Source: Serratia grimesii NBRC 13537 (GTDB lineage Bacteria > Pseudomonadota > Gammaproteobacteria > Enterobacterales > Enterobacteriaceae). From it: a DNA stretch of 64,000 nucleotides. A program made the position numbers and the translations under genes. The notes under the pieces are model-generated. The model saw only the letters and a program-made list of their open reading frames with translations. It had not been told where the DNA came from and made no database searches. The stretch spans positions 124,001 to 188,000 of the forward strand of contig NZ_BCTT01000001.1 in the NCBI RefSeq assembly GCF_001590905.1, written 5' to 3'. Position 1 is the first letter of the stretch. Each line of letters begins with the position of its first letter. This document shows, in pieces, positions 3,469-64,000 of the stretch.

Positions 3469-4962
<1,494 letters not shown>

Positions 4963-4970
4963 CTCTTACA

Positions 4971-4992
4971 CGGTGGGTTATGCCCACCGTTT
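4971..4992 (+). terminator. Hairpin after serralysin gene
   Basis: Perfect 7-bp stem CGGTGGG/CCCACCG with a 5-nt loop, 9 nt after the serralysin stop codon, followed by only three Ts. A weak intrinsic terminator or 3' stabilising hairpin. Confidence 0.6.
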
Positions 4993-5138
4993 CCCTGTGG
5001 TTTATAATCGTCTAGTCTCGTAACATTCCTCTCCTACCCAGGTTCGTGCCGCCTTGTAAGAATGGCGTAAGCCACTGGGAATTACTCATTCTATTATTTC
5101 AATAATTCTGTGGCGATATTAGACGATCAAAATACGGT

Positions 5139-7291: not shown

Positions 7292-8308
7292 ATGAGTCAT
7301 TCATCCCAACCCCTGCGTGTTGGTCTGATCGGTGCCGGCAGAATGGGCACCTTCCATGCAGAATCGTTGGCACGACGCGTGCCGGGCGCAGTATTGGCAG
7401 CGGTGGCCGATCCTTTGCCGGGTACAGCGCAGCGGCTGGCAGAACGCTTGGGCGTGAAAGCCTACAGTGATTTGCAGGCAATGCTGGATGATCCTGCAAT
7501 TGATGCCGTAGTCATTGCTTCACCGGCACGCACACATGCGGAGTGGGTGATCGCTGCGGCTCAGGTGGGCAAGCATGTATTTTGTGAAAAGCCGATGGCC
7601 ATCACGCTAGATGAGGCGGACCGAGCTATTGCCGCAGCAAAAAGGGCGGGAGTGGTTCTCCAGGTGGGGTTTAACCGCCGTTTTGTCAGTGGGTTTGCTG
7701 CCGCCATCGCCACCGTGAAGTCGGGGGAAAATGGTACCACGCAGCTCTCTCGTTCGGTGACGCGAGACCCCTTGCTGCGCGATCCGGCGCCGATCCCGGC
7801 GTGGACCATCTTTCTGGAAACCTTAATCCATGACTTTGACACACTGTTGCATTTCAATCCGGGCGCCAGGCCGGTAGAAGTCTATGCCTTGGCGGATGCG
7901 TTGGTGCGCCCGGACTTCAAGGACAAGGGATTGCTGGATACGGCCGTGGTCACGATTCGCCTTGATAACGGAGCTATCGCCACTGCCGAAGCCAATTTCC
8001 AGGCGGTCTACGGTTACGACGTGCGTGGTGAAGTGTTCGGCAGCAAAGGGATGTTACAGGCGGGCAATATCAACCTGAATAACTGTGTGCGCTATCACGC
8101 TGGCGGTATCGCCATTGAGACATCGAGGCAGGATACCGACTTGCTGCACGACGCCTACGTGGCAGAACTGACCGAATTCGCGCACTGTATTCAGCAGGGG
8201 CAAAGCCCACGCGCGACCGGTCAGGATGCACGTAATGCGTTGGAGATCGCACTTGCCTGTATTGAGTCGGTACAACAGGGCAAACCCGTCACACTTAGGG
8301 GGCAATGA
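7292..8308 (+). CDS. Gfo/Idh/MocA family dehydrogenase (inositol 2-dehydrogenase-like)
   Basis: A 338-residue NAD(P)-dependent oxidoreductase. The Rossmann motif GLIGAGRMGTFHAESLA is at residues 11-27, and CEKPMAI near residue 95 supplies the conserved Lys of the family. The C-terminal half is the usual beta-sheet substrate domain, with HDFDTLLHF containing the conserved metal/substrate Asp-His region. IolG-like enzymes oxidise the C2 hydroxyl of myo-inositol or related polyols to a ketose. The start has AAGGA 7 nt upstream. The stop overlaps the next gene's start (ATGA), so the two are translationally coupled. It is the first gene after the sigma-54 promoter. Confidence 0.88.
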   Translation: MSHSSQPLRVGLIGAGRMGTFHAESLARRVPGAVLAAVADPLPGTAQRLAERLGVKAYSDLQAMLDDPAIDAVVIASPARTHAEWVIAAAQVGKHVFCEKPMAITLDEADRAIAAAKRAGVVLQVGFNRRFVSGFAAAIATVKSGENGTTQLSRSVTRDPLLRDPAPIPAWTIFLETLIHDFDTLLHFNPGARPVEVYALADALVRPDFKDKGLLDTAVVTIRLDNGAIATAEANFQAVYGYDVRGEVFGSKGMLQAGNINLNNCVRYHAGGIAIETSRQDTDLLHDAYVAELTEFAHCIQQGQSPRATGQDARNALEIALACIESVQQGKPVTLRGQ

Positions 8309-9087
8309 TGGCGCGTTATCAATTGTCCGTTTGTGCCGAGATGGTGTTTCTCGATCTGCCCTTTGTTGAACGTGTGGCACGTATTGATGCACTTGGCTTC
8401 GGTGTTGAAATCTGGAATTGGGCCAACAAAGACATCGATGCGTTGGTCGCTACCGGCGCGCGCTTCACGTCAATGACCGGCTATCTCACCGGCAACCTGA
8501 CCGATGACGAAGAAATTGCCCAACTGCTACAAACCGCGGAACAGTCGCTGGCGATAGCACAGCGCCTGAACTGCCAAAACCTGAACCTGCACGGAACCGG
8601 TTTAGATCCGCAGGGGTTACCGGTAAAACCGGTGGGGACAGTGACTGGCGCAATGTGGTTGAAAGCAGCCGATACCCTGAGCGGCTTAGCGCAGATGGCG
8701 GAGCGCGCCGGGAAAGTATTTACGTTGGAAAACCTCAACTTACCACGGGATCACCCAGGTACGCCTTTCGCCAAAGCCTGCGACACCCTGACTCTGGTGG
8801 AGGCAGTTAACCGCCCGGGGCTGAAAATGAACCTCGATCTTTACCATGCCCAAATTGGCGAGGGTAACCTCATTGAACTGATTCGCCGCTGTGGCCCAGC
8901 CATCGGCGAGATCCAGGTGGCTGACGTACCGGGGAGGCAGCAGCCCGGCACCGGTGAGATCAACTACCGTGCAATAGCGCGCACTCTGGAGGAGATGGGT
9001 TACCAGGGCGTGGTGGCGTTGGAAGGATGGGCCTCCGGCGACAGCACTGAAGCATTGCAACAGTTTCGTGACCATTTCACTCGTTGA
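8305..9087 (+). CDS. Hydroxypyruvate isomerase-like TIM-barrel sugar isomerase
   Basis: About 260 residues, the standard length for Hyi/IolE-type xylose-isomerase-like TIM barrels. Metal-binding positions are visible: Glu in LENLNLP, Asp-x-x-His in LDLYHAQ, and the final Glu in VALEGW. It would interconvert ketose/aldose forms of the product made by the preceding dehydrogenase. Two adjacent ATGs (8305, 8308) are possible starts behind a GGGGG run, and the first overlaps the previous stop. Co-transcription with the dehydrogenase from the sigma-54 promoter is near certain. The precise substrate is not determined. Confidence 0.85.
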   Translation: MMARYQLSVCAEMVFLDLPFVERVARIDALGFGVEIWNWANKDIDALVATGARFTSMTGYLTGNLTDDEEIAQLLQTAEQSLAIAQRLNCQNLNLHGTGLDPQGLPVKPVGTVTGAMWLKAADTLSGLAQMAERAGKVFTLENLNLPRDHPGTPFAKACDTLTLVEAVNRPGLKMNLDLYHAQIGEGNLIELIRRCGPAIGEIQVADVPGRQQPGTGEINYRAIARTLEEMGYQGVVALEGWASGDSTEALQQFRDHFTR

Positions 9088-9180
9088 TCCAAATAAAACC
9101 GGGTATTGGCCTGTTGCCCGGTACAGGCAGTGATGCGTTGATTTTAATAATAAATAAACCTCAACCTACAGGATGTCATC

Positions 9181-10104
9181 ATGAAAACGAAAACGTTACT
9201 TTTGATACTGCTGAGCATGGTTATGGCTTTCAGCGCCCAGGCGAAAACCTATAAAGTCGGCGTAGCGCTGGCTAATTTCGATCTTAACTTTGTCTCTATT
9301 TTACGTTCGCAAATGGCGAGTGAACTTAAGCAACTGAATATGGATAGTCAGTTTGCCGACGCGAAAGGGGATGTGGCGCTACAGGTGCAACAGGTGGATG
9401 ACTTTATCAACCTTGGGGTGGATGCCATCATCCTTAATCCTGTTGATACACAGGGCGTAAAGCCGATGATGGACGCTGCTGAGCGCGCCAATATTCCGCT
9501 GATTTTTGTCAACCGCAAGCCGGAAGTGAAGTTGGGTAAGGATATGGCCTATGTGGGTTCAGACTCGGCGGCAGGCGGTGAAATGCAAATGGAAGCGTTG
9601 GCCAAGAAAATGAATTATCGCGGCAACGTGGCAATCCTGATGGGGGCGTTATCGAACGAAGAGGCGCGCGAGCGCACCCGTGCCGTAGAAGCGGTGATCG
9701 CCAAATACAAAGACATGAAGGTATTGGAAAAACAGACTGCCAAATGGCAGCGCAATGAGGCGGTGGACGTGGTGTCCGGCTGGTTACTGAATGGTCGCCC
9801 GATTGACGCTATCGCGGCCAACAACGACGAAATGGCCATTGGTGCCATCATGGCGCTGAATCAGGCCAAAAATAAAAGCATCCTGGTGGCGGGGATCGAC
9901 GGCACGCCGGACGGTCAACAGTTTATTAAAAATGGCGGCATGACGTTAACCATTTTCCAGGACGCCAAAGGGCAGGCCATTGGTGCCGTGCAGGTAGCCA
10001 AGGCGCTGTTGGAAAAACACAAGGTCGAGCCGTATAACTGGGTACCTTACAAAACGATCACTCAAGATAATGTGGCGTCGTTCGTGGCGGATAATCAGAA
10101 GTAG
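9181..10104 (+). CDS. Periplasmic sugar-binding protein (RbsB/IbpA-like)
   Basis: A 307-residue type I periplasmic binding protein. It has a Sec signal peptide (MKTKTLLLILLSMVMAFSAQA, cleavage after AQA near residue 21) and then the typical strand YKVGVALANFDLNF. Features of sugar binders include DAIILNPVD (near residue 82) and IDAIAANNDEMAIGA (near residue 205). It follows the isomerase after about 90 bp, in which an ACCGGG/CCCGGT hairpin (9098-9122) without a T-run may reduce read-through. No permease or ATPase gene follows, so it must work with a transporter encoded elsewhere or serve as a chemoreceptor ligand carrier. Confidence 0.88.
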   Translation: MKTKTLLLILLSMVMAFSAQAKTYKVGVALANFDLNFVSILRSQMASELKQLNMDSQFADAKGDVALQVQQVDDFINLGVDAIILNPVDTQGVKPMMDAAERANIPLIFVNRKPEVKLGKDMAYVGSDSAAGGEMQMEALAKKMNYRGNVAILMGALSNEEARERTRAVEAVIAKYKDMKVLEKQTAKWQRNEAVDVVSGWLLNGRPIDAIAANNDEMAIGAIMALNQAKNKSILVAGIDGTPDGQQFIKNGGMTLTIFQDAKGQAIGAVQVAKALLEKHKVEPYNWVPYKTITQDNVASFVADNQK

Positions 10105-10120
10105 ATGGTGTTATTGCAGT

Positions 10121-10160
10121 GGTCGGCAGATTGAATAAGAATTACTTTCATTTGCCGACC
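10121..10160. repeat. Inverted repeat GGTCGGCA...TGCCGACC
   Basis: Eight-base arms at 10121-10128 and 10153-10160 flank a 24-base AT-rich spacer. It lies between the binding-protein stop and the AraC regulator start. It may be a 3' hairpin of the upstream gene or an operator for the AraC gene. The AT-rich spacer loosely resembles a Fur site but does not match well enough to call one. Confidence 0.4.
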
Positions 10161-10211
10161 GTTATGCCATAGTGAAAGCCCTGTTGCCCGCTATCTGAAC
10201 ACGCGTACACC

Positions 10212-11105
10212 ATGACAACCATGCCGTCTTTCGCAGTACAACATCAGCCCATCATCACGCCAGTTCCGCATCCCGAACGCCTAAAATTTACACCGCACAT
10301 CCTATTGCATAGTGGTACCTTGCTGGAACAGCAGTCTACCTGGGAGGATGATCCGTTGATCAACGGTATCAAGTTGGCGCTCGTGCACAGTGGCGAGATG
10401 CAATGCCGGGTTACAGGGCAGGCTGAACGGCATATCGCCGAACCTTCACTTTGTGCATTCAGTAACCTTGGCGACTTCGCTGTGACACACCGTTTTAAAC
10501 GGGATACCCCTCTGCGCTACACCATTTTGCAATTGGAGAGCGACGGCCAGGATCAACATGCCGAATTGTTTCCCGCAGCATTAACGTCTCGGGCAGGGCA
10601 GCCGCCGAAAATGGTTATCGGTCCGGCCCCCAAACTGTTATTGGCGTTGTCCACACAGATTGCCACTTGCCCGTTGCAAGGGGCCACGCGCGATCTGTAT
10701 TTGGCGGGCAAGGCGATGGAACTCATCGCGATGAGCCTGCAACACCTGTCCGATGTCCCGTCAAAGGCAGTCGATCTACGGCTCACTCGCTCGGATATTG
10801 AACGCCTCCACGCCGCGCGCGATCTGTTGATTGCCAACCTGCCACATCCTCCGGGGTTGGATCGTTTGGCAGCACTGGTGGGGATTAACACCCGCAAACT
10901 CACCAACGGCTTCCGTCAGATCTTTGGCAACAGCGTGTTTGGATGGTTACAAGAGTATCGTCTGCAACAAGCCCACAGCATGCTCAGTACCGAAGAGACC
11001 AATGTGGCCACCATCGCCTATCGTGTGGGTTACAGCCCAGCACATTTATCCATCGCATTCCGCAAGCGCTTTGGCATTTCCCCTCGAGCGGTGATGGCGC
11101 GCTAA
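10212..11105 (+). CDS. AraC family regulator (PchR/YbtA-like)
   Basis: A 297-residue protein with a variable N-terminal sensing domain and a C-terminal double helix-turn-helix of AraC type (LAALVGINTRKLTNGF, then VATIAYRVGYSPAHLSIAFRKRFG, about residues 215-290). The architecture and its place directly before two fused ABC proteins parallel ybtA-ybtPQ and pchR in siderophore loci. It probably senses a ferric siderophore and activates the two transporter genes. This role is inferred from context. The 100-bp gap after it contains no terminator, so it could also be co-transcribed with them. No strong ribosome site precedes the chosen ATG. Confidence 0.85.
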   Translation: MTTMPSFAVQHQPIITPVPHPERLKFTPHILLHSGTLLEQQSTWEDDPLINGIKLALVHSGEMQCRVTGQAERHIAEPSLCAFSNLGDFAVTHRFKRDTPLRYTILQLESDGQDQHAELFPAALTSRAGQPPKMVIGPAPKLLLALSTQIATCPLQGATRDLYLAGKAMELIAMSLQHLSDVPSKAVDLRLTRSDIERLHAARDLLIANLPHPPGLDRLAALVGINTRKLTNGFRQIFGNSVFGWLQEYRLQQAHSMLSTEETNVATIAYRVGYSPAHLSIAFRKRFGISPRAVMAR

Positions 11106-51879: not shown

Positions 51880-52911
51880 CTAAAAGGTCAGCGAATCATA
51901 GTTTTTGCGCCGGTAATTCAGCGCGGACAATGCCCACAGCAACACAAACAGCACAATAGCGGCGTAACCGACGCTGCCCATATGGTCATTGAGAATCTCA
52001 ACACCGTGCCAAAGGCCGCCTTGTAACCCCAGTTTGTCGGCCAACAAACCTAAACCTTCCAGGCCCCCAATCACCAAAGCAATCACCACGCTGGTGCCGG
52101 TAATGGTCATATTGTAATACAGCTTGCGGATCGGTTTATTGAAGGCCCAACCATAAGCGCCGACCATCACAAAGTTATCCAGTGAGTCGATCAGCGCCAT
52201 GCCGCTGGCAAACAGCAACGGGAACAGCATAATCGACCAGACCGACAGGCCGGACGTGGCGCCTGCCGCGGAGATACCCAACAGACCGACTTCGGTGGCG
52301 GTGTCAAAACCCAGACCAAACAAAAAACCGACCAGATACATATGCCAGCTTTTATTCACCAGATTAAAAGCAAAGCGATACAGGCGTGTCATCACACCGC
52401 CGCTACCGTTAACCAGCAGAGCCACATCTTGTTCCACCAATTTTTCTCCGCGTTTCGCCTGACGGAAAATGCGGTAAACATCGCGAAAAATCAGCCAGTT
52501 CAATAGCGCCATGGCCAGCAGGAACAGTGACGAGATGAGCGTGCCCAGTGTCGCACCATACTGATGCAGCCAGCCAATGCGGTCGCCAAAGGCCAATGAA
52601 GTGGCGGCAATGGCAATGCAGGCCAGGATCACGATGCTGGAGTGGCCCAAAGAGAAGAATGCGCCGACGGAAACCGGGCGCTGGCCTTGCTGCATCAGTT
52701 TGCGCGTAACGTTATCGATAGCGGCGATATGGTCAGCATCCACCGCATGACGCAGCCCATAGCCATAAGCGAGCAAAGCGGCGGCGATTAACGCCGGGTA
52801 GCGATGGAAGGCGGCAAAAGCGGCCCCCCAGGCCAACAGATTTAGCGCCACCAGCGCCAGTAATAACCAAAAGGCGCGGGTATGGGTGTGGAAAAACTCG
52901 CGGTTTAACAT
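51880..52911 (-). CDS. NiCoT family nickel/cobalt permease (HoxN/NixA-like)
   Basis: 343 residues with eight hydrophobic segments. The family signature HAVDADHIAAIDN (HX4DH, near residue 50) in the second helix, and the second motif FGLGFDTATEVGLL (near 193), define the substrate path for Ni2+ or Co2+. AGGA lies before ATG 52911, one base past the hypF stop, so it is translationally linked to hypF. Nickel supply for the hydrogenase encoded next door is the obvious role. Confidence 0.93.
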   Translation of the reverse strand: MLNREFFHTHTRAFWLLLALVALNLLAWGAAFAAFHRYPALIAAALLAYGYGLRHAVDADHIAAIDNVTRKLMQQGQRPVSVGAFFSLGHSSIVILACIAIAATSLAFGDRIGWLHQYGATLGTLISSLFLLAMALLNWLIFRDVYRIFRQAKRGEKLVEQDVALLVNGSGGVMTRLYRFAFNLVNKSWHMYLVGFLFGLGFDTATEVGLLGISAAGATSGLSVWSIMLFPLLFASGMALIDSLDNFVMVGAYGWAFNKPIRKLYYNMTITGTSVVIALVIGGLEGLGLLADKLGLQGGLWHGVEILNDHMGSVGYAAIVLFVLLWALSALNYRRKNYDSLTF

Positions 52912-52912
52912 A

Positions 52913-55210
52913 TCAGGTCCTGTCAAAGGTAGAAGAAGAAGCCGGAGAGTGTTGGGCGCAGGCGACCAGCGCCTGACCCAGCGCCAGCCCGCCATCACCC
53001 GCCGGCAATTGCTGTGGCAGCAGTATTTGCAAAGGGGCCAGATGGTGCTGCAGAAGTTGACGCAGAAGACGGTTGTGCAAAACACCACCGCCTACCGCCA
53101 CATGCTCAATGCCATGATGAGCAGCAAAATGTTTGGCCATATTCGCAAACCCTTGCGCCAACGCATCATGGAACGCCCAAGCCTGTTGCGCGGCAGGGGC
53201 CTGCCAGCCCAACCATTGCTGCCAGAACACGGATAAATCCAGCTGATTACCGCGAAGCGGTAACGTAACAGGGTGAGGGCAAGGCTCACTTTGATGGGCA
53301 AGAGCTTCAAAAATGCTGGCTGCTTCTCCCTCCCAACTTTGCTGTGCAGGGGCATAACCCAGCGCCGCTGCTGCGGCATCAAACAAACGACCGCATGAAG
53401 AGGCTAACGGCGCATTAATACCGGCGTTAATTGCGTGTAGCAGCGGTTGCCATGGGGTTTGCAGCAACGGTTTAGCCTGTGGATAGCGTTGCCAGTCCGG
53501 TACGAAACGTGCAAAGTGCGCGAGCTGATTACGCCAAGGTTGTTGTGCGGCACGATCGCCGCCGGGCAGCGCGACTGCCGGCAGGCCACCCAGATGGCGG
53601 CAACGACGGTAATCAAATAACAGGCATTCTCCACCCCACAAAGCACCGTTCTGCCCATAACCGAGACCGTCTAACGCGAGGCCGATCACGGCACCGCCGT
53701 CCAGCGGCCAGTGATGCTCAGCCAGACAAGCGGCCAAATGTGCATGATGGTGCAACACGGGTGTCACCGGCAGCGATTGCAGCGCAGCCCACTGGTGGCT
53801 GACATAACCGGGATGAGCGTCGCTTGCCAGCCGCTGCGGTTGGCAATGGTATAAGCCGATGAAATGCTGCATTGCCTGTTGCCACTGTTGCTGGATATCC
53901 TCCCGTTCTAAATCACCAAAATGCGCGCTGAGCAGGGCGTTATCTCCTGCGATCAGGCAAAAAGTATTTTTACGATCGCCACCCACGGCCAACAACGGTT
54001 GCTGAGCAGGAAAGCCTGGCGGTAGCGGCAGGGCGTCAGGCACGAATCCACGCGCCCGGCGTAGCATTTCATGGCCATTCGGCAGCAAACGAACGAGAGA
54101 ATCGTCCGCACGTTGTACGATCTCGCGATTGTGCATGAGCCACAGATCGGCAATTCCGGTCAGCTCAGTTAACGCCTGGTCATTCGTTAATACTGGCCGC
54201 AGGCCTGCAGCATTGCCAGAGGTCATCACCAACGGCCGTTGTATTTCTTGCATCAAGAGATGCTGAATTGGGTTAGCGGGCAACATTAAGCCCACTTCAT
54301 TCAATTGTGGGGCAATAGCCTCGGACAACGGTGACTCGGCAGACAGTGCCGTCAGGACGATAGGTGCAGCAGGCGACGTCAATAATGCCTGTAACCGCGG
54401 CAGGTCAACGTCAGCGGAACAGCGCTCCAGCCAACGGGTATCCGGTAACATCACCGCCAGCGGTTTGCTCGGTCTCCGTTTCCGTAGGCGAAGGCGATCG
54501 ACGGCCTGGGTATTGGTGGCGTCACAAGCCAGGTGAAAACCGCCCAGACCCTTGATTGCCACAATGTGTCCGGCAGCCAAGGCAACGGCAGCCTGTTGCA
54601 ACGCCGCTTCGCCTTGATACTGGGCCTCTCCTGGCGCGCCACAGCAGAACAGCTGTGGCCCACATTCGCTACAGGCCACGGGTTGTGCATGAAAGCGTCG
54701 GTCTTGCGGGGCGTGATACTCCCGATCGCAGCGCGGGCAGAGAATGAATGGCGCCATGCTGGTTGCCGGACGATCATAAGGCATCGTGCGAATAAGGGTA
54801 AAACGGGGGCCACAATGCGTGCAGTTGATAAAGGGATAACGGTAACGCCGATCCTGCGGATCATTCATTTCCTGTAGGCATTGCGGGCAGGTCGCCGCGT
54901 CCGGGACGATGTGCGTAGCCATAGCGCCGGACTGACTGGGGCGGATGCTGAAATCATTGGGGGCGTGCAGCCAGGTAAAGGGCCATTGCTGAATGCGATC
55001 GATCTGCGCCAACGGAGGCGCCTGTTGATGCAATACATGCAGGAACAACTCAAGTTCGACGGGCTGTACCAGACGAATCTCCACACCAGCACTGTCGTTC
55101 CAGACTTCGCCACGCAGGTTGAGCTGTTCGGCCAGTTGCCAGACAAAAGGCCGGAAGCCGACGCCCTGTACTTTGCCGCTGATGCGCAGCAGTAATCCTG
55201 AATGGGACAT
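52913..55210 (-). CDS. hypF: Carbamoyltransferase HypF, hydrogenase maturation
   Basis: 765 residues with all HypF domains in order: acylphosphatase ([13 protein letters not shown], residues 12-25), two zinc-finger modules (CPQC...CTHCG and CPRC...CSECG, about 108-185), a YrdC-like domain (about 205-385) and a Kae1-like domain with [13 protein letters not shown] (near 485). It makes carbamoyl-AMP from carbamoyl phosphate and passes the group to HypE, giving the cyanide ligands of the NiFe centre. Separated from fdhF by an 86-bp folded repeat, but probably still part of the hydN transcript. hypABCDE are not in this window. Confidence 0.96.
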
Positions 55211-55332: not shown

Positions 55333-57489
55333 TTAGAACACATCTTCTGCTGCGCGACGCAGGCGGGCCTTCATGTCGCTGTAGCTCTGCTGGGCATAAT
55401 TTTCCGCCCAGTTCTGATCGCTAATTGCCGCCAGTTTTACCGCGCAGTACTTGGTTTCTGGCGTTTTGGAGACTGGGTCCAGATTTTCTTGGGTCAGTTC
55501 GTTACAGGCCCCAATCCACCACTGGTAGGTCATATATACCGCCCCCAGATTGATGCGTTCGTTATAGTTGGCGCGACTGATGACCTTGCCGCGGCGCGAG
55601 CTGACCCACACCAGTTGCTGATCGGCAATACCCAGCGCTTCGGCATCCTGTGGATTGATCTGCACGAAACCGGGTTCATCAGCCAGAGTTTGCAACGCGG
55701 CACAGTTACCGGTCATCGAACGGCATGAGTAATGGCCGACCTCACGCACGGTACAGAGCACCAGCGGGTAGTCTGCATCCGGGATTTCCGCTGGCGCACG
55801 CCAGGTGGTGGCAAATAATTGGCCCTTACCGGACGGCGTGGTGAACTGATTGCCCTGATACAGATAAGGCGTTCCCTGGCTTTCCAGCGTGGTACAAGGC
55901 CATTGAACATGGCCAAGTTCGCCCATTTTTTCGTAAGTGGCACCGTAAAACAGCGGGCAGAGTTCGCGCATTTCGTCCCAGATCTGCTGGTTATCGTCGT
56001 AATGCATCGGATAGCCCATCTCGGTCGCCAACAGACTGATGATTTCCCAATCGCGTTTGACGTTGTACTGCGGCTCAATGGCTTTTTCGAAACGTTGGAA
56101 CCCGCGATCGGCACAGGAGAATACGCCACCATGCTCACCCCAGGAGGTGGCAGGCAGGATCACATCGGCCTGTTCGGCGGTTTTGGTCATAAAGATGTCT
56201 TGCACTATCACAAAGTCCAATGCGTCGAACGCGCCGCGCACCAGGCTCAGATCGGCTTCGGTCTGTAACGGATCTTCCCCCATGATGTAATAGGCCTTCA
56301 CTTTACCTTCGTGCACCAAATGTGGGATCTCGGTAATGCGGTAACCGACGTTGGGATCCATCTTGCTGGCATCAATACCCCAGGCCGCAGCGAATTTGGC
56401 GCGGACGCCAGCGTCGGTGACGGCCTGATAACCTGGGAACTCATTGGGCAGGACGCCCATATCACAGGCACCCTGAACGTTGTTCTGCCCACGTACCGGG
56501 CCAACCCCCACATTAGCGCGTCCCAGATTGCCGGTAAGCAGCGCCAGACTGGCAAGGCCTTTGACCACATCGACAGCCTGACCGAATTGAGTCACGCCCA
56601 TGCCCCACATGATGGTGGCGGAAGGCGCACTGGCGTAGGTGCGCATCGCCTGGCGAATTTGCTGGGCGCTAACGCCGGTCAGATGTTCCACGGCTTCTGG
56701 CGCATAATCCGCTAACTGTAGGCGGTAAGCCTCGAAACCTTCCGTGTATTTCGCCACGTAATCGCGGTCATACAGGTTTTCTTCAATCAGCGTATAGGCA
56801 AAGGCATTCACCAGCGCCATGTTACAGCCGTTTTTGATCTGCAAATGTTGGTCGGCAATACGTGCGGTTTCGATACGGCGCGGGTCACAGACGATAATTT
56901 GCGCGCCTTTCTCTTTGGCCTTCAGCACCCGGCGAGCCACGATAGGGTGCGAATCGGCACAGTTGTAACCGATGACCAGCAGGCATTTAGAGTTTTCGAT
57001 ATCGCCAATCGAGTTGCTCATTGCGCCGTTGCCCAATGTGGCCTGCAAACCTGCCACCGACGGGCCATGACAGACACGGGCGCAGCAGTCAACGTTGTTG
57101 GTCCCAATCACCGCACGCGCGAACTTCTGCATAACGTAGTTGGTTTCATTACCGGTGCCACGTGATGAGCCGGTATGCATGATCGCGCTGGCACCGTGTT
57201 TATCTTTGATCTGTTGTAAGCGTTGCGCGGTATAACGAATCGCTTCATCCCAGCTGACCGCTTCAAACTTGCCGCCTTTCTCACGGCGAATAAGCGGCTG
57301 GCTCAGGCGCGGGGTCAAGAGTTTGGTATCGTTTAGAAAGTCCCAGCCGTAATAACCTTTCAGGCACAGCTCGCCCTGATTGGTCACGCCATCAGCCGCC
57401 TCGGCACGGATGATTTTCCCGTTGTCGACCACCAGTTTCATTTTGCAGCCTGCACCGCAGTAAGGGCAGACGGTTGTGATTTTTTTCAT
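55333..57489 (-). CDS. fdhF: Formate dehydrogenase H, cysteine (selenium-independent) form
   Basis: 718 residues, colinear with E. coli FdhF (715). The N-terminal 4Fe-4S site is CPYCGAGC...C (residues 8 onward). Lys in CLKGYYG, His141 in CHGPSV and Arg in PVRGQNN match the known catalytic and electron-path residues. Residue 140, selenocysteine (UGA) in E. coli, is Cys encoded by TGT at 57070-57072. There is no in-frame TGA, so the reading frame is continuous. It oxidises formate to CO2 using bis-MGD molybdenum and passes electrons to HycB/HydN-type ferredoxin subunits. It lies 11 bp after hydN. Cys forms are expected to turn over more slowly but need no selenium. Confidence 0.96.
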   Translation of the reverse strand: MKKITTVCPYCGAGCKMKLVVDNGKIIRAEAADGVTNQGELCLKGYYGWDFLNDTKLLTPRLSQPLIRREKGGKFEAVSWDEAIRYTAQRLQQIKDKHGASAIMHTGSSRGTGNETNYVMQKFARAVIGTNNVDCCARVCHGPSVAGLQATLGNGAMSNSIGDIENSKCLLVIGYNCADSHPIVARRVLKAKEKGAQIIVCDPRRIETARIADQHLQIKNGCNMALVNAFAYTLIEENLYDRDYVAKYTEGFEAYRLQLADYAPEAVEHLTGVSAQQIRQAMRTYASAPSATIMWGMGVTQFGQAVDVVKGLASLALLTGNLGRANVGVGPVRGQNNVQGACDMGVLPNEFPGYQAVTDAGVRAKFAAAWGIDASKMDPNVGYRITEIPHLVHEGKVKAYYIMGEDPLQTEADLSLVRGAFDALDFVIVQDIFMTKTAEQADVILPATSWGEHGGVFSCADRGFQRFEKAIEPQYNVKRDWEIISLLATEMGYPMHYDDNQQIWDEMRELCPLFYGATYEKMGELGHVQWPCTTLESQGTPYLYQGNQFTTPSGKGQLFATTWRAPAEIPDADYPLVLCTVREVGHYSCRSMTGNCAALQTLADEPGFVQINPQDAEALGIADQQLVWVSSRRGKVISRANYNERINLGAVYMTYQWWIGACNELTQENLDPVSKTPETKYCAVKLAAISDQNWAENYAQQSYSDMKARLRRAAEDVF

Positions 57490-57500
57490 CGGTTCAGTTC

Positions 57501-58043
57501 CTAAAACAGTGACGACAGGGTGTCGAGCGCGGCGCGACGACGTTTCTCGGCATTCATTTCTTGCAGCATATTGCGGTCAACGCAGTGCAGTGCATTAGTT
57601 GGGCAGGTTTCCATGCAGGCGGGGCCGCTATCACGACCGATACACAGGTCGCATTTGTGGGCTTCAGCTTTCTCGGTGGTGGCACTCATCACAGCGCCGT
57701 TCTGGCGGACAACCGGGCGGGTGATCACTTCCATCGCGCCGTAAGGGCAAGCGACGACACAGGTTTTGCAGCCGATGCAGCGTTCTTGCATCACCAGCAC
57801 CATGCCGTTGGTGCGACTGATCGCACCGTTGGGGCACACATTGGAACAAGGTGCGTCTTCACACTGGCGGCACAGTACGGCGGTACTGACGTTAACGCCT
57901 TTGATCACATGCAGTCGCGGGGCGAAGCTGGCGGGATTTAGCGCTGAAATTTCCTGGCTTTCACTGTGTGCCATCACACAGGCGATCTCACAGGTACGGC
58001 AGCCGATGCATTTTTTGGGATCGGCGATGATAAACCGGTTCAT
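57501..58043 (-). CDS. hydN: HydN, 4Fe-4S electron carrier for formate dehydrogenase H
   Basis: 180 residues with four 4Fe-4S cluster motifs: CIGCRTCEIAC near residue 13, CRQCEDAPCSNVC near 58, CIGCKTCVVAC near 89 and CDLCIGRDSGPACMETC near 132. GGAG lies 6 nt before ATG 58043; a TTG one codon earlier is less likely. It supports FdhF maturation or electron transfer, and in E. coli is co-transcribed with hypF from a sigma-54 promoter. Here fdhF is inserted between hydN and hypF. A -24/-12 element lies about 60 bp upstream. Confidence 0.93.
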   Translation of the reverse strand: MNRFIIADPKKCIGCRTCEIACVMAHSESQEISALNPASFAPRLHVIKGVNVSTAVLCRQCEDAPCSNVCPNGAISRTNGMVLVMQERCIGCKTCVVACPYGAMEVITRPVVRQNGAVMSATTEKAEAHKCDLCIGRDSGPACMETCPTNALHCVDRNMLQEMNAEKRRRAALDTLSSLF

Positions 58044-58105
58044 CAATAACTCCTGGGTTACCCTTCAGCAGGGTATGGCAGTAGAAACGTTGTGACTTCT
58101 TTTAG

Positions 58106-58120
58106 GCATAAAGCATGCCA
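58106..58120 (-). promoter_or_regulatory. Sigma-54 (-24/-12) promoter of hydN-fdhF-hypF
   Basis: Minus-strand TGGCATGCTTTATGC has TGGCA and TGC with exact -24/-12 spacing. Transcription would start near 58094, about 50 nt before hydN. FhlA-dependent control by formate is expected by analogy with E. coli. Confidence 0.78.
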
Positions 58121-58205: not shown

Positions 58206-58679
58206 TCAGACATTCGTCACCACCAGTTGTGGGTAGCCGCCCTGGTGCGGCCAGTCATGCAGCCGCTGATGCAGGGTGGTTACTGCCTGCCTTACCGCCG
58301 CGCCGATCGGGTAGTAAAACGCCACCACCTCCGGCTGAATGCCGATAAAAGTAATATCCGGCACCGTTTCGCGCAGTTGGTCGATCAGGAAGTTGAGCGG
58401 CAGGTTATGGGTAGTCATGATGAACATGTCGGCAATGTCTTTTTCATCGATCACCCGGGTTTCTCCCGCGGCCAGCCCCATGTCGGTGGCATCGACAATC
58501 ACCAGCCGTGAAGGGTGCAGCTCGCGGATATGGCCAATGTCGTTTTCCGGTGCGGCGCCGCCGTCAATCACCGTCCAGCCGTCGGGGGGATTGCCGGCAC
58601 AGAGTTCTGCCAGCAGCGGTCCGGCACCGTCATCACCCATCATGCAGTTGCCTACACACAATAGAACGTCAGTCATCAT
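58206..58679 (-). CDS. hycI: HycI, hydrogenase 3 maturation protease
   Basis: 157 residues. GNCMMGDDGAGPLLAE at the start carries the nickel-sensing Asp, and DATDMG near residue 62 and THNLPLN near 90 provide the other metal ligands. It clips the C-terminal extension of HycE after nickel insertion. Overlaps hycH by 11 bp. Two adjacent ATGs (58679, 58676) follow GGAGG. Confidence 0.95.
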   Translation of the reverse strand: MMTDVLLCVGNCMMGDDGAGPLLAELCAGNPPDGWTVIDGGAAPENDIGHIRELHPSRLVIVDATDMGLAAGETRVIDEKDIADMFIMTTHNLPLNFLIDQLRETVPDITFIGIQPEVVAFYYPIGAAVRQAVTTLHQRLHDWPHQGGYPQLVVTNV

Positions 58680-59085
58680 GCCTCCGGACCATCAGATAAA
58701 TGGCAGGTTCGTTTTCAATCGATTGCAGCAGGGCGATCAGCTGCTGGCTCCAGTCTTGCTGTTCCACGGTCATCTGCGGCGCTGCGGTACTCAAGGCAGT
58801 GGCTAACAAGTGGGTATGGCTGCTGTCGATACAAATTTCCCCAAAGCGATCGACCCCTTCAAGCTTGCGCCGGGCGGTGCTGCCTACGGGCAGGTGGGCC
58901 ACCCATGCGTGGAACCCGGTCAGTGGGCAACTGAGTTTGGCCTCCAGGCAGTCGATAACACCCAGATGGTGGCCGATAGCCAGGCTGTAATAGATCACCT
59001 CCTGGGCTTTGGGTGGGGCCTTTTTCTCTTGCACGAACTTACGGCTTAGGGAGTAAAACACCACTTGAGCCTGGGAACCGGTCAT
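58669..59085 (-). CDS. hycH: HycH, formate hydrogenlyase assembly protein
   Basis: 138 residues, the usual HycH size, with the family start [24 protein letters not shown]-like segment and [15 protein letters not shown] near residue 35. It is a maturation factor for HycE, not a final subunit. Overlaps hycG by 4 bp and hycI by 11 bp. Confidence 0.93.
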
Positions 59086-59879
59086 AGTCGCAACTCCCCA
59101 CGCAGTACCCGCTGATAGATACCTTGCAGGTTGCCGACAATCTCGCTCAGACGTAGATCGTCTTGTTGTTGCAGGTAAGCGCTAATGCGTTGTTCGACGG
59201 GGAGTGCACTGTCTGCTGCCAGCAATTGCATGAACTGGTCGGCGATTTGGCGACCATAGCGGTAGCCGGCCATCCGCCTGGCTTCCCGATCCAGTAATAC
59301 CCGTAACGGTTGGGGGAGTTCAGGGTGCAGCAAATGTGCCGCTTCACCCTGGGTTTCATCATGCTGGCGGCCTTTGATTTTCTGATCCAACAGACCGAGC
59401 GCCATGGCGAAACCGTAAATGGTCGCGGCGGGCGTTGGCGGGCAACCGGGGATATAGACATCGACCGGTACGATGCGATCGGTGCCGCCCCATACACAGT
59501 AGAGATCGTGGAAAATGCCGCCGCTGTTGCCGCAGGCACCGTAAGAGATGCTGATTTTCGGATCGGGTGAGGCTTGCCAGGCACGGATCGCCGGGATACG
59601 CATGGCGCGGGTGACTGCCCCGGTAAACAGCAAAATATCGGCGTGACGGGGTGAGGGAACCACTTTAATACCGAAGCGTTCGGCATCGAACAGCGGCGAA
59701 ATGGCGGCAAAAATCTCTATTTCACAACCATTGCAACCGCCGCAGTCTACCCGGTAAACATAGGCCGAACGGCGGATATCCTTCAGCAGGGTAGTTTTCA
59801 GCTTGGCGATGCTGTCGTCGAGGGTGATCGGCACCGGCAGGCCATTTTCATCGCGTGGGCCAATCAGTGGCGGATTCAT
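59082..59879 (-). CDS. hycG: HycG, small subunit of hydrogenase 3
   Basis: 265 residues. The cluster-N2-like 4Fe-4S site is formed by [12 protein letters not shown] (near residue 47), the Cys in YGACGNSGG (near 113) and IPGCPPTP (near 147). It transfers electrons to HycE and is homologous to NuoB. Slightly longer than the 255 residues of E. coli. Its start overlaps hycF by 4 bp. Confidence 0.95.
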
Positions 59880-60421
59880 GAGATGACCTCCCGGGTCAAA
59901 TGACGGCCAATGTCAATGCGATCGGCCTGGGTCAGGTTTTGCTGTTGTTTACAGGCAGGACAGGTTTCAAACTGCGGACGGCGGGCGGCCATTTCTGCAC
60001 TGCTCAGTCCAAGCAGCGCAATCGCATAATCTATTTCTTTTTGCGACGCATAGGCTTTACCGCATTGCCGGCAATGGCAAATGGCGAAATCGGCGTGTTC
60101 ATACAGATCCTCTTTGCGCCACACCGCCAGCTCGAATGCCTGTGAAAGTCGGATGGCGGTGGTTGGGCAGACCTCTTCACAGCGCGCACAGAAGATGCAG
60201 CGACCAAGAAAAAACTGCCAACGTATTGTGCCGGTGGTCATGTCGGTCGACATGGACAACGCATTAGACGGACAGGCGTTAGCACAAGCCCCACAGGCAA
60301 TGCATTGCTGCGGGTTATATTCGGGTTTGCCGCGAAAATTCGGGTCAATGACCAATGGTTTGGCTGGATAGGCCACGGTGGCAGGCCCGGTGTTCAGCAC
60401 TTTTTTAATCAGTTTCAGCAT
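59876..60421 (-). CDS. hycF: HycF, 4Fe-4S subunit of formate hydrogenlyase
   Basis: 181 residues with two 4Fe-4S motifs, [16 protein letters not shown] (near residue 41) and [16 protein letters not shown] (near 75), homologous to NuoI. A C-terminal [10 protein letters not shown] plus CPACKQQ pair forms a possible extra metal site. Co-transcribed in hycCDEFGHI order. Confidence 0.95.
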
Positions 60422-60433
60422 GATGGGCTCCGG

Positions 60434-62137
60434 TTAGAACGGTTTGTTTTTCCGTTCGATGCCATAACGCTCAATTTCTTTGTACGGCACGATGATGGAT
60501 TGGCGCTTACGCACGTCGACGATGGTCATCCTGTCGGTACAGGAATAGCAGGGATCCAGGCTGCCAATGATCAGCGGGGCGTCAGAAACGGTATTGCCGC
60601 GCAGCATGTAGCGCAGTGTTGGCCAATTGGCATAGGTTGCGGCACGGCAGCGCCAACGGAACAGTTTCTGGTTGTCGCCGGTCATGCTCCAGTGGATATC
60701 ATCGCCACGCGGCGCTTCGGCGAAGCCCAGGGCAAAGCGGTGTGGAATGTAGGTGAATCCCTCCACGGCCAGCGGCCCAGTTGGCAAGGTTTGCAGACCA
60801 AACTCGATAATGCCAAGCGAGTTGAACACTTCGTGAATACGTACTTTAAGCCGGGAGTAGACGTCACAACCGTCCTCAACGCACAATTCCACCGGCAGTT
60901 TGGCGTAGCCGGCAAACGGATGATCGAGACGAGTATCACGTCGGTGGCCGCTGCCACGGATCATCGGCCCCACGTTGCTGTAGTCACGAGCCACTTGAGG
61001 ATCAAGACGGCCAACGCCTCGGCTACGTTGTTCGGTATTCGGCGTACTGAGCAAGATATCGACCAGATCCACCAGCTCACTGCGCATTTGTGCCGCCAGC
61101 CGTAGGGTTTGCAACATGTCGTCTTTTAAAATATCGCGCCGGATGCCACCAATCAGGTTCAAACCGTAGGTTTTACGCGCGCCGGTCAGTATCTCAGCCA
61201 TCTTCATCGACTGTTCACGCACCCGGAAGAACTGCATAAAACCGGAGTCAAAACCGACGAAATGGCAGGCCAACCCCAAGTTCAGCAGATGGCTGTGCAG
61301 GCGTTCCACTTCCAGCAGGATCGAGCGGATCATTTGGGCACGTTCTGGTACCTGAATACCCATCGCGTTCTCTACCGAACTGGTGTACGCCACACTATGC
61401 GTAAAACCGCAAATGCCGCACACGCGATCCGACAAGAAGGTCACTTCGTTGTAACCCATGCGGGTTTCGGCCAGTTTCTCCATCCCACGGTGTACGTAGA
61501 ACAGCCGGTAGTCGGCATCGATGATGTCTTCACCGTCCACGAACAACCGGAAATGCCCCGGTTCATCTGATGTAATATGCAATGGGCCAATAGGCACCAC
61601 GTTGGCTTTGCTACCGGCCAGGCTCTGGAACGGATAGGTTTCCACGTCGGTGGTTGGTGCGGGGCGTTGACGATAGTCCATGGCGTCTTTACGCAACGGG
61701 TAGAGATCGTCCGGCCAGTCGTCCGGCAGCACCAGTCGGCGTTCATCTGGCAAACCCACCGGGCGCAGGCCATACATATCGCGCACTTCGCGTTCACCCC
61801 AAACGGCAGCGGGTACCCGTGGCGTCACGGAAGGGAACTCCAGGGTCTGGGCATCAACTTCGGCGCGTACCGTGATCCAGCATTTTGTGCCTTGCTCCAT
61901 CGACAGCACGTAATACAGCGCGTAATTGCCACACAGCGTGCGTTCGTCGTTACCAAACAGCACCGACAGCCAGCCGCCCTGTTGGTAATACAGCCATTCC
62001 ACCACTTCCGGCAGCGCGTTGAGTTTGACGGTCACCGTCAGTTGGTCGGCCGTTTGCCATTCCGCCGCCAGCATGGCAGCGGGGAATTGTTGCTGCAATG
62101 CCGCCAGATAGTGCTGGCCTTGATGTTCGTTAGTCAT
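60434..62137 (-). CDS. hycE: HycE, large subunit of hydrogenase 3
   Basis: 567 residues. The N-terminal part matches NuoC, the rest NuoD. The NiFe ligands are in RVCGICGFTHS (near residue 240) and DPCYSCTDRM (near 530). After the last motif comes a C-terminal tail of about 32 residues, removed by HycI. ATG 62137 has GAGG about 10 nt upstream; the longer in-frame version begins with TTG. It evolves H2 from electrons delivered by FdhF through HycB, F and G. Confidence 0.95.
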   Translation of the reverse strand: MTNEHQGQHYLAALQQQFPAAMLAAEWQTADQLTVTVKLNALPEVVEWLYYQQGGWLSVLFGNDERTLCGNYALYYVLSMEQGTKCWITVRAEVDAQTLEFPSVTPRVPAAVWGEREVRDMYGLRPVGLPDERRLVLPDDWPDDLYPLRKDAMDYRQRPAPTTDVETYPFQSLAGSKANVVPIGPLHITSDEPGHFRLFVDGEDIIDADYRLFYVHRGMEKLAETRMGYNEVTFLSDRVCGICGFTHSVAYTSSVENAMGIQVPERAQMIRSILLEVERLHSHLLNLGLACHFVGFDSGFMQFFRVREQSMKMAEILTGARKTYGLNLIGGIRRDILKDDMLQTLRLAAQMRSELVDLVDILLSTPNTEQRSRGVGRLDPQVARDYSNVGPMIRGSGHRRDTRLDHPFAGYAKLPVELCVEDGCDVYSRLKVRIHEVFNSLGIIEFGLQTLPTGPLAVEGFTYIPHRFALGFAEAPRGDDIHWSMTGDNQKLFRWRCRAATYANWPTLRYMLRGNTVSDAPLIIGSLDPCYSCTDRMTIVDVRKRQSIIVPYKEIERYGIERKNKPF

Positions 62138-62159
62138 TGTTGATTGCCTCAATCATTAT

Positions 62160-63095
62160 TCAGCCGACGACCAGCCAGGAAACCAGCGCCAGAAATGCCA
62201 GTCCAAAACCGGTCCAGGTGGTGTAAGCGGTTTTCAAGAAACGCAAACGCGCCACGCTGTTTTCGATAACCGCAATCAGTGCCACTGCACACAGCAGCTT
62301 GAACAGCGCCAGTACCAGTCCAACCAATAATTGCGGCGCGTTGAGTTCTGCCGCTTGCCCCCAGGGCAGGAAAACGCCGAGGAACAATTGCAACACCACC
62401 AGTTGTTTGAGGCTGATGCCCCATTTCAGAATGCCTAGCTCAGCCCCGGAATATTCCGTCAGCGGGCCTTCCTGTAGCTCTTGTTCCGCTTCAGCCATAT
62501 CGAACGGCAATTTGCCCATTTCGATGTAGGTGGCGAACGCACAGGCCAAGCCGGCCAACAGCAGCGGTAACCCGGCGTGGTGTGGCAACCCCAATACGCT
62601 TTGCACCATCGCGCTTAGTTGGGTGGAACCCGCAACCAATGCCGCTACCCACAAACCGAGTAGTAAAATGGGTTCAACCAAAATGCCCAACACGGCTTCG
62701 CGGCTGGCACCGATGGCGGTGAAGGGGCTGCCGGTATCCAATCCTGCGATAGCGAACACAAAGCGCACTACGGCGAACAGATAGATCAGTGTGATCACAT
62801 CACCGATGGCGGGCAGCGGTGAGGCGGTGGTCAGCATCGGTAGCGCACAGGCGATGGCCAGCAAGGTGCCGGTCAACAAATAAGGCATGGCACGAAAGGC
62901 CAGGCCGGAAGCGCCCGGTGCCACGCTTTGACGCTTGAGCAGTTTGGCGATATCTCGGTATTCCTGTAATACGCCAGGCCCGCGTCGGGTGTGGATGCTG
63001 GCTCGCAGCACCCGGCTGATCCCGGCAAACAGCGGGGCAACGGCCAGTAACAGCAGGGCCTGTACCAAGCCGAGTAATACATAGGGATAGGTCAT
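62160..63095 (-). CDS. hycD: HycD, membrane subunit of formate hydrogenlyase
   Basis: 311 residues, eight transmembrane segments, homologous to NuoH. FDMAEAEQELQEGPLTEYSG (near residue 200) is the conserved loop facing the hydrophilic arm. GAGGAG 6 nt before ATG 63095 sets the start. Anchors the hydrogenase to the inner membrane and may carry protons. Confidence 0.95.
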   Translation of the reverse strand: MTYPYVLLGLVQALLLLAVAPLFAGISRVLRASIHTRRGPGVLQEYRDIAKLLKRQSVAPGASGLAFRAMPYLLTGTLLAIACALPMLTTASPLPAIGDVITLIYLFAVVRFVFAIAGLDTGSPFTAIGASREAVLGILVEPILLLGLWVAALVAGSTQLSAMVQSVLGLPHHAGLPLLLAGLACAFATYIEMGKLPFDMAEAEQELQEGPLTEYSGAELGILKWGISLKQLVVLQLFLGVFLPWGQAAELNAPQLLVGLVLALFKLLCAVALIAVIENSVARLRFLKTAYTTWTGFGLAFLALVSWLVVG

Positions 63096-63105
63096 CGTTA
63101 TCTCC

Positions 63106-64000
63106 TCAGGCAAAAGCCACAACCAACAGCACCGCCAACTCTACGGCGGCCAGACCGCGGCAGAAGGTAACGAATACGTTACGGTGTAACCCATCACTGA
63201 CTTTCTCAGGCAGCCAGCGTCGCAGTTGATACAGCGGGGCAAACATTACTCGCAACGGCTGAGCAAAGCCGGTAGCGGTGATCACCATTGCGTCTTCATG
63301 CCCATAACCGCAGGCCCAGGCACTGCCTTGCACCCGATGAGGCTGGCGACGAGTTTGATAACGCGCCGCGATCAACAAAGGCAGCAGTGGCATCGCCAGC
63401 AATAAAATGGCGATCAGCGGAGTAGAAACCAGCGCATCAGTCACAGACAGGTTGTGTTCCGGCAGGGTGCCAATCAAGCGGGCAAACAGCGGGACGATCC
63501 AGGGGGCGCCCAGACCGCATAGCAAGCACAGTAATGCAGGCAGTACATGGCTGAGCGTCAGCCACAGGTTGGCCTGAACCGCATTCTTGGCAGCGGCGCT
63601 GCGCGGCGCGCCCAAGCAAGCGACACCAAATACCTTGCTGACGCACATCACCGCGAGTGCACCGGTCAAGGCTAAGGTCACTGCCAGCAACGGGCCAAAC
63701 AGATGCCCGATAAAGCTGGGTGCTGCGCTGAAACGGAAGAGTCCCTGATAGATTAGCCATTCACTGGCGAACCCATTTAAAGGAGGCAGTGCAGCCATCG
63801 ACACCAGACCAATCAACAGGGCAACCGCGGTCCAGGGCATCAGCCGCGCGAGTCCCCCCATTTTTTCCATGTCTTTCAGGCCGGTTTGTTGCTCAATGGC
63901 ACCCGCCGCCAGAAGCAGTGCGCTTTTGAACAGGCTATGATTCAACAAGTGGAACAGACCGCCGATCAGGGCGAATGCGGTCAATAGCGGCAGTTGTAGC
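63106..64000 (-). CDS. hycC: HycC, antiporter-like membrane subunit (C-terminal part)
   Basis: The frame is open to the right edge of the window, so the N-terminal half is missing. About 298 residues of a NuoL/Mrp-type protein are visible: HLLNHSLFKSALLLAAGAIEQ (the conserved His/Lys helix of antiporter-like subunits), GLPPLNGFASEWL-like PPLNGFASEW, and a hydrophobic C terminus. It is the first visible gene of the hyc set; hycA and hycB would lie beyond. Confidence 0.93.
   Translation of the reverse strand, partial: LQLPLLTAFALIGGLFHLLNHSLFKSALLLAAGAIEQQTGLKDMEKMGGLARLMPWTAVALLIGLVSMAALPPLNGFASEWLIYQGLFRFSAAPSFIGHLFGPLLAVTLALTGALAVMCVSKVFGVACLGAPRSAAAKNAVQANLWLTLSHVLPALLCLLCGLGAPWIVPLFARLIGTLPEHNLSVTDALVSTPLIAILLLAMPLLPLLIAARYQTRRQPHRVQGSAWACGYGHEDAMVITATGFAQPLRVMFAPLYQLRRWLPEKVSDGLHRNVFVTFCRGLAAVELAVLLVVAFA

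What the first reader, a model, noticed from the sequence alone, without database searches (positions are those of the whole stretch)
57070..57072. Formate dehydrogenase H with Cys in place of selenocysteine
FdhF is a textbook selenoprotein, yet here codon 140 is TGT (Cys) in the same VxHGPSV context where E. coli has UGA. The rest of the active site (Lys, His141, Arg) is intact and the gene sits in a complete-looking hyc/hydN/hypF locus, so this is a natural selenium-independent formate hydrogenlyase. I recall a selenium-independent FdhF in Pectobacterium, so it may be a lineage trait and not unique.
Basis: partly seen in the sequence, partly recalled or inferred. Interest (0 to 1): 0.72.

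Follow-up and report, generated by a model that had tools for sequence, protein, structure and literature searches.

The report
Cysteine-type formate dehydrogenase in Serratia
This bacterium's hydrogen-from-formate gene cluster carries an enzyme with cysteine where the textbook E. coli enzyme has selenocysteine; that is a shared trait of a large enzyme branch already known from relatives, and the newer point is that one twig of that branch appears to have gone back to selenocysteine.

Summary
Confirmed: window 57070-57072 (- strand) is TGT, codon 140 of a 718-aa FdhF, identical to E. coli FdhF at 473 of 713 aligned positions, checked active-site residues kept, in a formate hydrogenlyase-1 locus. 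No UGA-type fdhF was found in the genome. It keeps selA, selB, tRNA-Sec, selD and an fdoG with one in-frame UGA: the complex should need no selenium, but the organism still decodes selenocysteine. Pectobacterium, the functional precedent, lacks that machinery (PMC7384014).

The Cys codon is not a local replacement: the gene belongs to a supported clade of 108 unique genes, 104 Cys and 4 UGA. E. coli FdhF is another paralogue.

Unexpected: the 4 UGA genes (Shewanella) nest inside the Cys clade with the SECIS core. Cys monophyly is rejected on the full alignment (p-AU 0.00012), not on residues 60-260 alone (0.07). A one-way Sec-to-Cys model fits 8-10 log units worse. This suggests a Cys-to-Sec regain in a family where a 2006 survey counted none (PMC1794560).

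The parts
57070..57072 (-). codon 140 of fdhF, TGT (Cys); UGA (Sec) in E. coli fdhF
57025..57069 (-). 15 codons after codon 140, where a SECIS would lie; core reads GGTTTG, one base off GGTCTG; a weaker hairpin can still form (-4.3 against -5.9 kcal/mol in E. coli, 19 nt)
55333..57489 (-). fdhF, Cys-type formate dehydrogenase H, 718 aa; TIGR01591 902.5 bits; 473/713 identical to E. coli FdhF
57501..58046 (-). hydN, electron-transfer ferredoxin-like protein (NF007658, 316.5 bits for 57501-58028)
58106..58120 (-). sigma-54-like site TGGCATGCTTTATGC upstream of hydN-fdhF; motif alone is not rarer than chance in the window
58206..58679 (-). hycI, hydrogenase 3 maturation protease (TIGR00142)
58669..59085 (-). 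hycH
   Evidence: tblastn on L148, the same region
59082..59879 (-). hycG
59876..60421 (-). hycF
60434..62152 (-). hycE, [NiFe]-hydrogenase 3 large subunit (82% to E. coli HycE)
62160..63122 (-). hycD, membrane subunit
63106..64000 (-). hycC, membrane subunit, runs past the window end (full ORF in L034 607-2475)
52913..55210 (-). hypF, carbamoyltransferase for the NiFe cofactor (TIGR00143)
51880..53088 (-). NixA/HoxN-type nickel transporter (TIGR00802; 51880-52998 scored)

Best explanation
The gene is an intact FdhF of the Cys-type paralogue clade of the order. It is most likely the formate-oxidising subunit of a formate hydrogenlyase-1: the cysteine thiolate of residue 140 ligates Mo in place of selenolate, and electrons pass through ferredoxin-like subunits to HycE, which makes H2 (mechanism inferred from the E. 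coli and Pectobacterium enzymes). UGA decoding and selenium are then not needed for this complex, while the same cell still decodes Sec for FdoG. The Cys state is inherited from the ancestor of the clade, not a change made in Serratia. E. coli K-12 uses a different, Sec-type paralogue and has no fdhF between hydN and hypF. Shown: codon, paralogy, synteny, Sec machinery genes, no UGA fdhF found. Inferred: activity, pairing with Hyd-3, selenium independence in vivo.
For: Codon and active site. Window gene in a 48-representative clade (SH-aLRT 100), 45 Cys + 3 UGA; with cluster members 104 Cys + 4 UGA of 108 unique genes. The order hycA-I, hydN, fdhF(Cys), hypF recurs in Serratia, Ewingella, Rahnella, Yersinia ruckeri, Pantoea, Buttiauxella and Cedecea loci. 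No exact SECIS core in the window gene. Sec trait intact: SelA 604 bits and SelB 705 bits, tRNA-Sec 80.1 bits, SelD 447 bits; fdoG with exactly one TGA in 26 of 30 genus genomes including this one (of the other four, three have pieces or broken matches and one none). One FdhF at E <= 1e-200 in this genome. Pectobacterium: in-frame fdhF deletion cut H2 about 500-fold (PMC7384014 passages). Both TGT and TGC occur within the genus, as expected if Cys is kept by selection.
Against: No activity data. A Sec-to-Cys E. [quoted passage not shown] FHL is patchy in the genus: intact fdhF in 11 of 30 genus genomes and broken in one. Only sequence and synteny tie this FdhF to Hyd-3. hycB, hypA and hypC of this genome were not scored over a family cut-off.
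Confidence: 0.88

Rival explanations
1. A recent, local Sec-to-Cys conversion in Serratia of an E. coli-type fdhF.
For: Such conversions do occur: L123 (G078) and L137 (G062) have TGT inside the E. coli-type clade with the SECIS core still present. The window gene's core is one base off and a weaker hairpin can form there.
Against: The window gene is only 66% identical to E. coli FdhF and sits in a separate clade with 104 Cys genes of many genera; Hafnia, Silvania and Franconibacter loci hold both paralogues. A one-base-off core is found in 45 of the 104 Cys genes and a hairpin as stable in 16 of 104, so neither marks Serratia out.
Confidence: 0.03
2. The ancestor of the window's clade carried UGA, Shewanella kept it, and five groups lost it in parallel, so there was no Cys-to-Sec regain.
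For: Sec-to-Cys is common in this family: 5 maximal Cys groups outside the window clade in the 91-row tree, 7 events in the 2006 survey (PMC1794560 passages). A Sec ancestry of the wider enzyme family has been argued (PMC7331816 passages). p-AU for Cys monophyly is 0.0736 when residues 60-260 are used alone. One Cys gene of the clade, L102, has the exact core.
Against: Needs 5 independent losses in the clade against one gain; irreversible model lnL -33.48 against -25.02, and -21.90 against -11.75; p-AU 0.000121 on the full alignment. No excess of relic cores: GGTCTG in 1 of 104 Cys genes where their own codon use predicts 13.2, and in 0 of 45 representatives where 5.0 are predicted (related genes are not independent).
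Confidence: 0.17
3. The gene is decayed or silent and the strain makes no H2.
For: fdhF and hypF are in pieces in one genus member (G022, L144); 18 of 30 genus genomes have neither an intact nor a broken copy.
Against: Intact ORF, active-site residues kept, intact-looking neighbours, sigma-54-like sites before hydN, hycA and hypA.
Confidence: 0.06

Closest known systems
Pectobacterium atrosepticum Cys-type FdhF of FHL-2 (PMC7384014, passages read)
   Same: Cys at position 140, working in a formate hydrogenlyase; the authors state that >50% of species with FHL genes use a Cys-type enzyme
   Different: There the partner is Hyd-4 (FHL-2) and the genome lacks Sec machinery; here the locus is Hyd-3 (FHL-1) and Sec machinery plus a UGA fdoG are present
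E. coli formate dehydrogenase H (FdhF; PDB 1AA6, 1FDO, 2IV2, 7Z0T)
   Same: FeS ligands, Lys44, His141, Arg333; FHL-1 context
   Different: Sec at 140 with a SECIS; a different paralogue clade (66% identity); gene not in the hydN-hypF locus
Cys-type FdhA in Sec-decoding bacteria, e.g. Mannheimia (PMC1794560, passages read)
   Same: Cys version kept in a genome that decodes Sec; that survey counts 11 such cases among its 15 Sec-to-Cys events over all families
   Different: There inferred as conversion from Sec, some with SECIS remnants; here a whole old Cys clade with no exact core in the window gene
Paired Sec/Cys formate dehydrogenases of Treponema primitia and Methanococcus (recalled, not checked here)
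   Same: Cys and Sec versions of one enzyme in related or the same genomes
   Different: Other phyla; not formate hydrogenlyase-1

Membership tests
FDH-H / FdhF (TIGR01591 formate dehydrogenase alpha) | whole-protein score over the curated cut-off | tested here: met
   902.5 bits against 666.25
FDH-H / FdhF (TIGR01591 formate dehydrogenase alpha) | 4Fe-4S cysteines, Lys44, His141, Arg333 | tested here: met
FDH-H / FdhF (TIGR01591 formate dehydrogenase alpha) | formate oxidation | not testable with these tools
   needs an assay
Selenoprotein FdhF | in-frame UGA followed by SECIS | tested here: not met
   codon TGT, core GGTTTG; a weaker hairpin remains possible
Formate hydrogenlyase-1 | hyc operon with one HycC and one HycD and no hyfDEF | tested here: met
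   tblastn on the window part and reading of ORFs beyond it
Formate hydrogenlyase-1 | physical FdhF-Hyd-3 complex making H2 | not testable with these tools
   needs biochemistry
Sec-decoding organism | selA, selB, selC, selD and at least one UGA gene | tested here: met
Cys-to-Sec regain (Shewanella fdhF) | UGA genes nested in a Cys clade | tested here: met
   on residues 60-260 alone nested too, but p-AU 0.0736
Cys-to-Sec regain (Shewanella fdhF) | SECIS core after the UGA and tRNA-Sec in the genome | tested here: met
   core in 4 of 4 UGA genes of the clade; tRNA-Sec of 81-86 bits in the 5 genomes of this group that were checked, G333, G379, G441, G510, G507
Cys-to-Sec regain (Shewanella fdhF) | selenium actually inserted | not testable with these tools
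   needs 75Se labelling or mass spectrometry

The most novel reading that the evidence does not exclude
Within the window gene's own Cys clade, a Shewanella lineage regained selenocysteine: a Cys-type fdhF was duplicated near the hydrogenlyase operon and one copy acquired UGA and a SECIS core, its codons just downstream differing from its closest Cys sister (L172) mostly by silent changes. That would be a Cys-to-Sec gain in the formate dehydrogenase family, for which the 2006 survey counted seven Sec-to-Cys and no Cys-to-Sec events.
Probability: 0.75. Interest if true: 0.6.

Novelty: new member of a known kind. Interest (0 to 1): 0.42.

Why it matters
For the window gene: it joins Cys-type FdhF to an E. 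coli-like FHL-1 in a cell that could use Sec and appears to do so in FdoG, so Cys here is not explained by loss of the Sec trait; that makes it a natural comparison and a selenium-free part for H2 or CO2-to-formate work. For the clade: switches in both directions at one codon, with SECIS cores left behind in two converted genes and a likely regain, make the question of why some enzymes keep Sec testable with paired natural genes.

Tried and rejected
Sequencing error or pseudogene: rejected (intact ORF; TGT/TGC alternate in sister genomes). Second UGA fdhF in the genome: none found. Intact SECIS core in the window gene: no, but it is one base off and a weaker hairpin forms, so a remote relic is not excluded; 45 of 104 Cys genes of the clade are also one base off. 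Gene conversion of the Shewanella UGA region from an E. coli-type Sec gene: not supported. In the sliding comparison of L185 (8 rows compared) a Cys row is closest in every stretch, codon-140 region included, and a tree of residues 60-260 still nests the UGA genes, although the constraint test on that part alone does not reject the alternative (p-AU 0.0736). Relic of fdhF in the 152-bp hydN-hypF gap of E. coli: no convincing match. Members of this subfamily outside the order: of 369 sampled class genomes only the window's own matched at E <= 1e-200. Literature: all 10 searches used. I saw no listed title or abstract start reporting Cys-type FdhF in Serratia or a Cys-to-Sec change in Shewanella FdhF; five papers were opened, as passages only, so absence from print is not established.

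Rows dropped: 178 unique genes were reduced to 95 representatives at 93% identity. The 48-row tree left out 13 of the 48 clade representatives and kept 13 outside rows. The four distant rows were pruned for the state models. Genes fetched and read were not added to the trees; the new ones are two partial copies and five genes that read like the other UGA clade. Not all UGA genes listed were fetched. The first run of the constraint test did not finish; one search finished it.

Full report
CHECK. The codon is as described. Window 57070-57072 is ACA on +, TGT on -, codon 140 of the 718-aa ORF 57489..55333. E. coli K-12 fdhF reads TGA there. The protein scores 902.5 bits on TIGR01591, its best PDB hit is E. 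coli FDH-H, and 473 of 713 aligned residues are identical, with the four FeS cysteines, Lys44, His141 and Arg333 kept (their roles recalled).

SURROUNDINGS. On the - strand the order is hycC, hycD, hycE, hycF, hycG, hycH, hycI, hydN, fdhF, hypF, nickel transporter. Past the window end come the rest of hycC, a ferredoxin-like ORF in the place of hycB, and hycA; on the other strand hypA (by reading), hypB, hypD, hypE and fhlA. Sigma-54-like sites lie before hydN (58106-58120) and before hycA and hypA (L034 3702-3716 and 3848-3862). The motif counts are not clearly above chance (5 against 2.7 expected in the window; 3 against 0.9 in L034); only the positions are suggestive. By gene content this is an FHL-1 locus: one HycC, one HycD, no hyfDEF seen.

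SELENIUM. The genome has SelA and SelB (604 and 705 bits), an fdoG split by a stop nearby, tRNA-Sec at 80.1 bits and SelD at 447 bits. Read with UGA as Sec, fdoG is full length with one TGA in 26 of 30 genus genomes including this one. At E <= 1e-200 the genome has one FdhF match, the window gene. So the FHL should need no Sec, but the organism is a Sec user by gene content. In Pectobacterium, whose Cys-type FdhF drives H2 production, the Sec machinery is absent (PMC7384014; passages read; the same paper states that more than half of species with FHL genes have the Cys type). Read by hand: of 148 genomes (own included), 41 have an intact full-length FdhF of at least 60% identity. Twenty carry a UGA copy, and 20 of 20 have tRNA-Sec over 60 bits. 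Twenty-one have Cys copies only: 15 with tRNA-Sec (11 of them this genus) and 6 without. Nine have both kinds (counted in the twenty). One of the 15, G070, is unsure: it also has partial E. coli-like copies whose match lacks codon 140. G022 (broken) and G056 (fragments) were left out.

PARALOGY. The 80 nearest named loci carry Cys at the matched gene in 79; the exception is Shewanella fodinae L114, TGA. The nearest named record to the window gene is Serratia quinivorans, L042, 97.8%; that the window is a Serratia rests on this. Second, E. coli-type UGA copies lie in the same locus in Hafnia (L059), Silvania (L078, L084), Franconibacter (L081) and the unnamed G055 (L128). In E. coli K-12 hydN and hypF are neighbours 152 bp apart, and the gap shows no convincing relic of fdhF.

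TREE. From the fetched loci I took 178 unique FdhF genes (130 Cys, 48 UGA), 95 representatives at 93% identity, and left codon 140 out. The window gene is in a clade of 48 representatives (SH-aLRT 100): 45 Cys and 3 UGA; with cluster members 104 and 4. E. coli FdhF is in another clade. The least number of state changes is 7. Sec-to-Cys events are visible: L123 and L137 are TGT genes in the E. coli-type clade that still hold the SECIS core GGTCTG (that this is the core is recalled). Remnant SECIS after Cys codons, in an FdhA too, were already reported in 2006 (PMC1794560 passages). The core is present in 48 of 48 unique UGA genes and in 4 of 130 Cys genes; in the window's clade in 1 of 104 Cys genes, L102. 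From their own codon use 13.2 of the 104 would be expected to have it, so it is rarer than chance there, with the caution that the genes are related. The window gene itself is one base off, like 45 of the 104 (itself counted), and a weaker hairpin can form.

THE SHEWANELLA CASE. The clade's UGA genes (L114, L184, L185, L175) form one group. Of the five genomes with a UGA copy of this group, four (G333, G379, G510, G507) also hold a Cys copy 12-20 kb away, both copies of G507 being partial; G441 has the UGA copy only. In a 48-row careful tree the nesting has bootstrap 99, 100 and 99 at three successive forks. Holding all 45 Cys representatives together costs 84.2 log units, p-AU 0.000121. On residues 60-260 alone the nesting recurs, but p-AU is 0.0736, so that test does not reject. 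Reversible two-state models give P(Cys) of at least 0.9966 for the clade's ancestor. A model with Sec-to-Cys only fits worse: -33.48 against -25.02 on 91 rows and -21.90 against -11.75 on 48 rows. Without a gain, five parallel losses are needed in this clade. The five genomes of the group that were checked have tRNA-Sec of 81-86 bits; the two Cys-only sister-family genomes, G246 and G268, have none over the cut-off. The codons GCA GGT CTG CGC of the UGA genes face GCA GGG TTG CGC in the Cys sister L172: same amino acids, two silent differences; the other Cys sisters differ more. The 2006 survey (PMC1794560, passages) lists 7 Sec-to-Cys and no Cys-to-Sec events for FdhA; a 2026 review (PMC13188914, passages) says documented Sec-to-Cys cases are mainly in FdhA and SelD. 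The Shewanella genes look like a counter-example. The case rests on tree shape and a simple model, not on biochemistry, and I have not shown that it is unpublished.

VERDICT. Interest is modest for the gene itself and higher for the regain in its clade.

Noticed in passing
L116 10001-12130 / L025 (Intestinirhabdus alba): FdhF reads RVCCGPSV: His141, kept in 177 of 178 unique genes, is Cys here.
   Followed up: no
L144 (G022, same genus) 8069-10225: fdhF and hypF lie in several pieces in one genus member while the hyc matches look whole.
   Followed up: no
L123 (G078) 3848-5986; L137 (G062) 8030-10168: Cys-coding genes of the E. coli-type clade that still carry the SECIS core, in genomes that keep tRNA-Sec: look like fresh Sec-to-Cys conversions.
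   Followed up: partly
104 Cys genes of the window's clade, codons 147-148: The SECIS core GGTCTG is rarer than their codon use predicts (1 against 13.2; 0 against 5.0 in 45 representatives): shared ancestry or avoidance, not resolved.
   Followed up: partly
L141, L142, L143: A further Cys FdhF group with two HydN-like genes beside it and no hyc/hyf structural genes matched in the fetched stretch.
   Followed up: no
G389 C1:5120549 and C1:2061692: Two different tRNA-Sec matches (78.6 and 65.5 bits) in one genome of the Shewanella-coded genus.
   Followed up: no
L198 (G418), L199 and L200 (G435): Cys and UGA FdhF copies in one genome outside the window's family, the Cys copy beside hyf/hyc-like genes.
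   Followed up: partly
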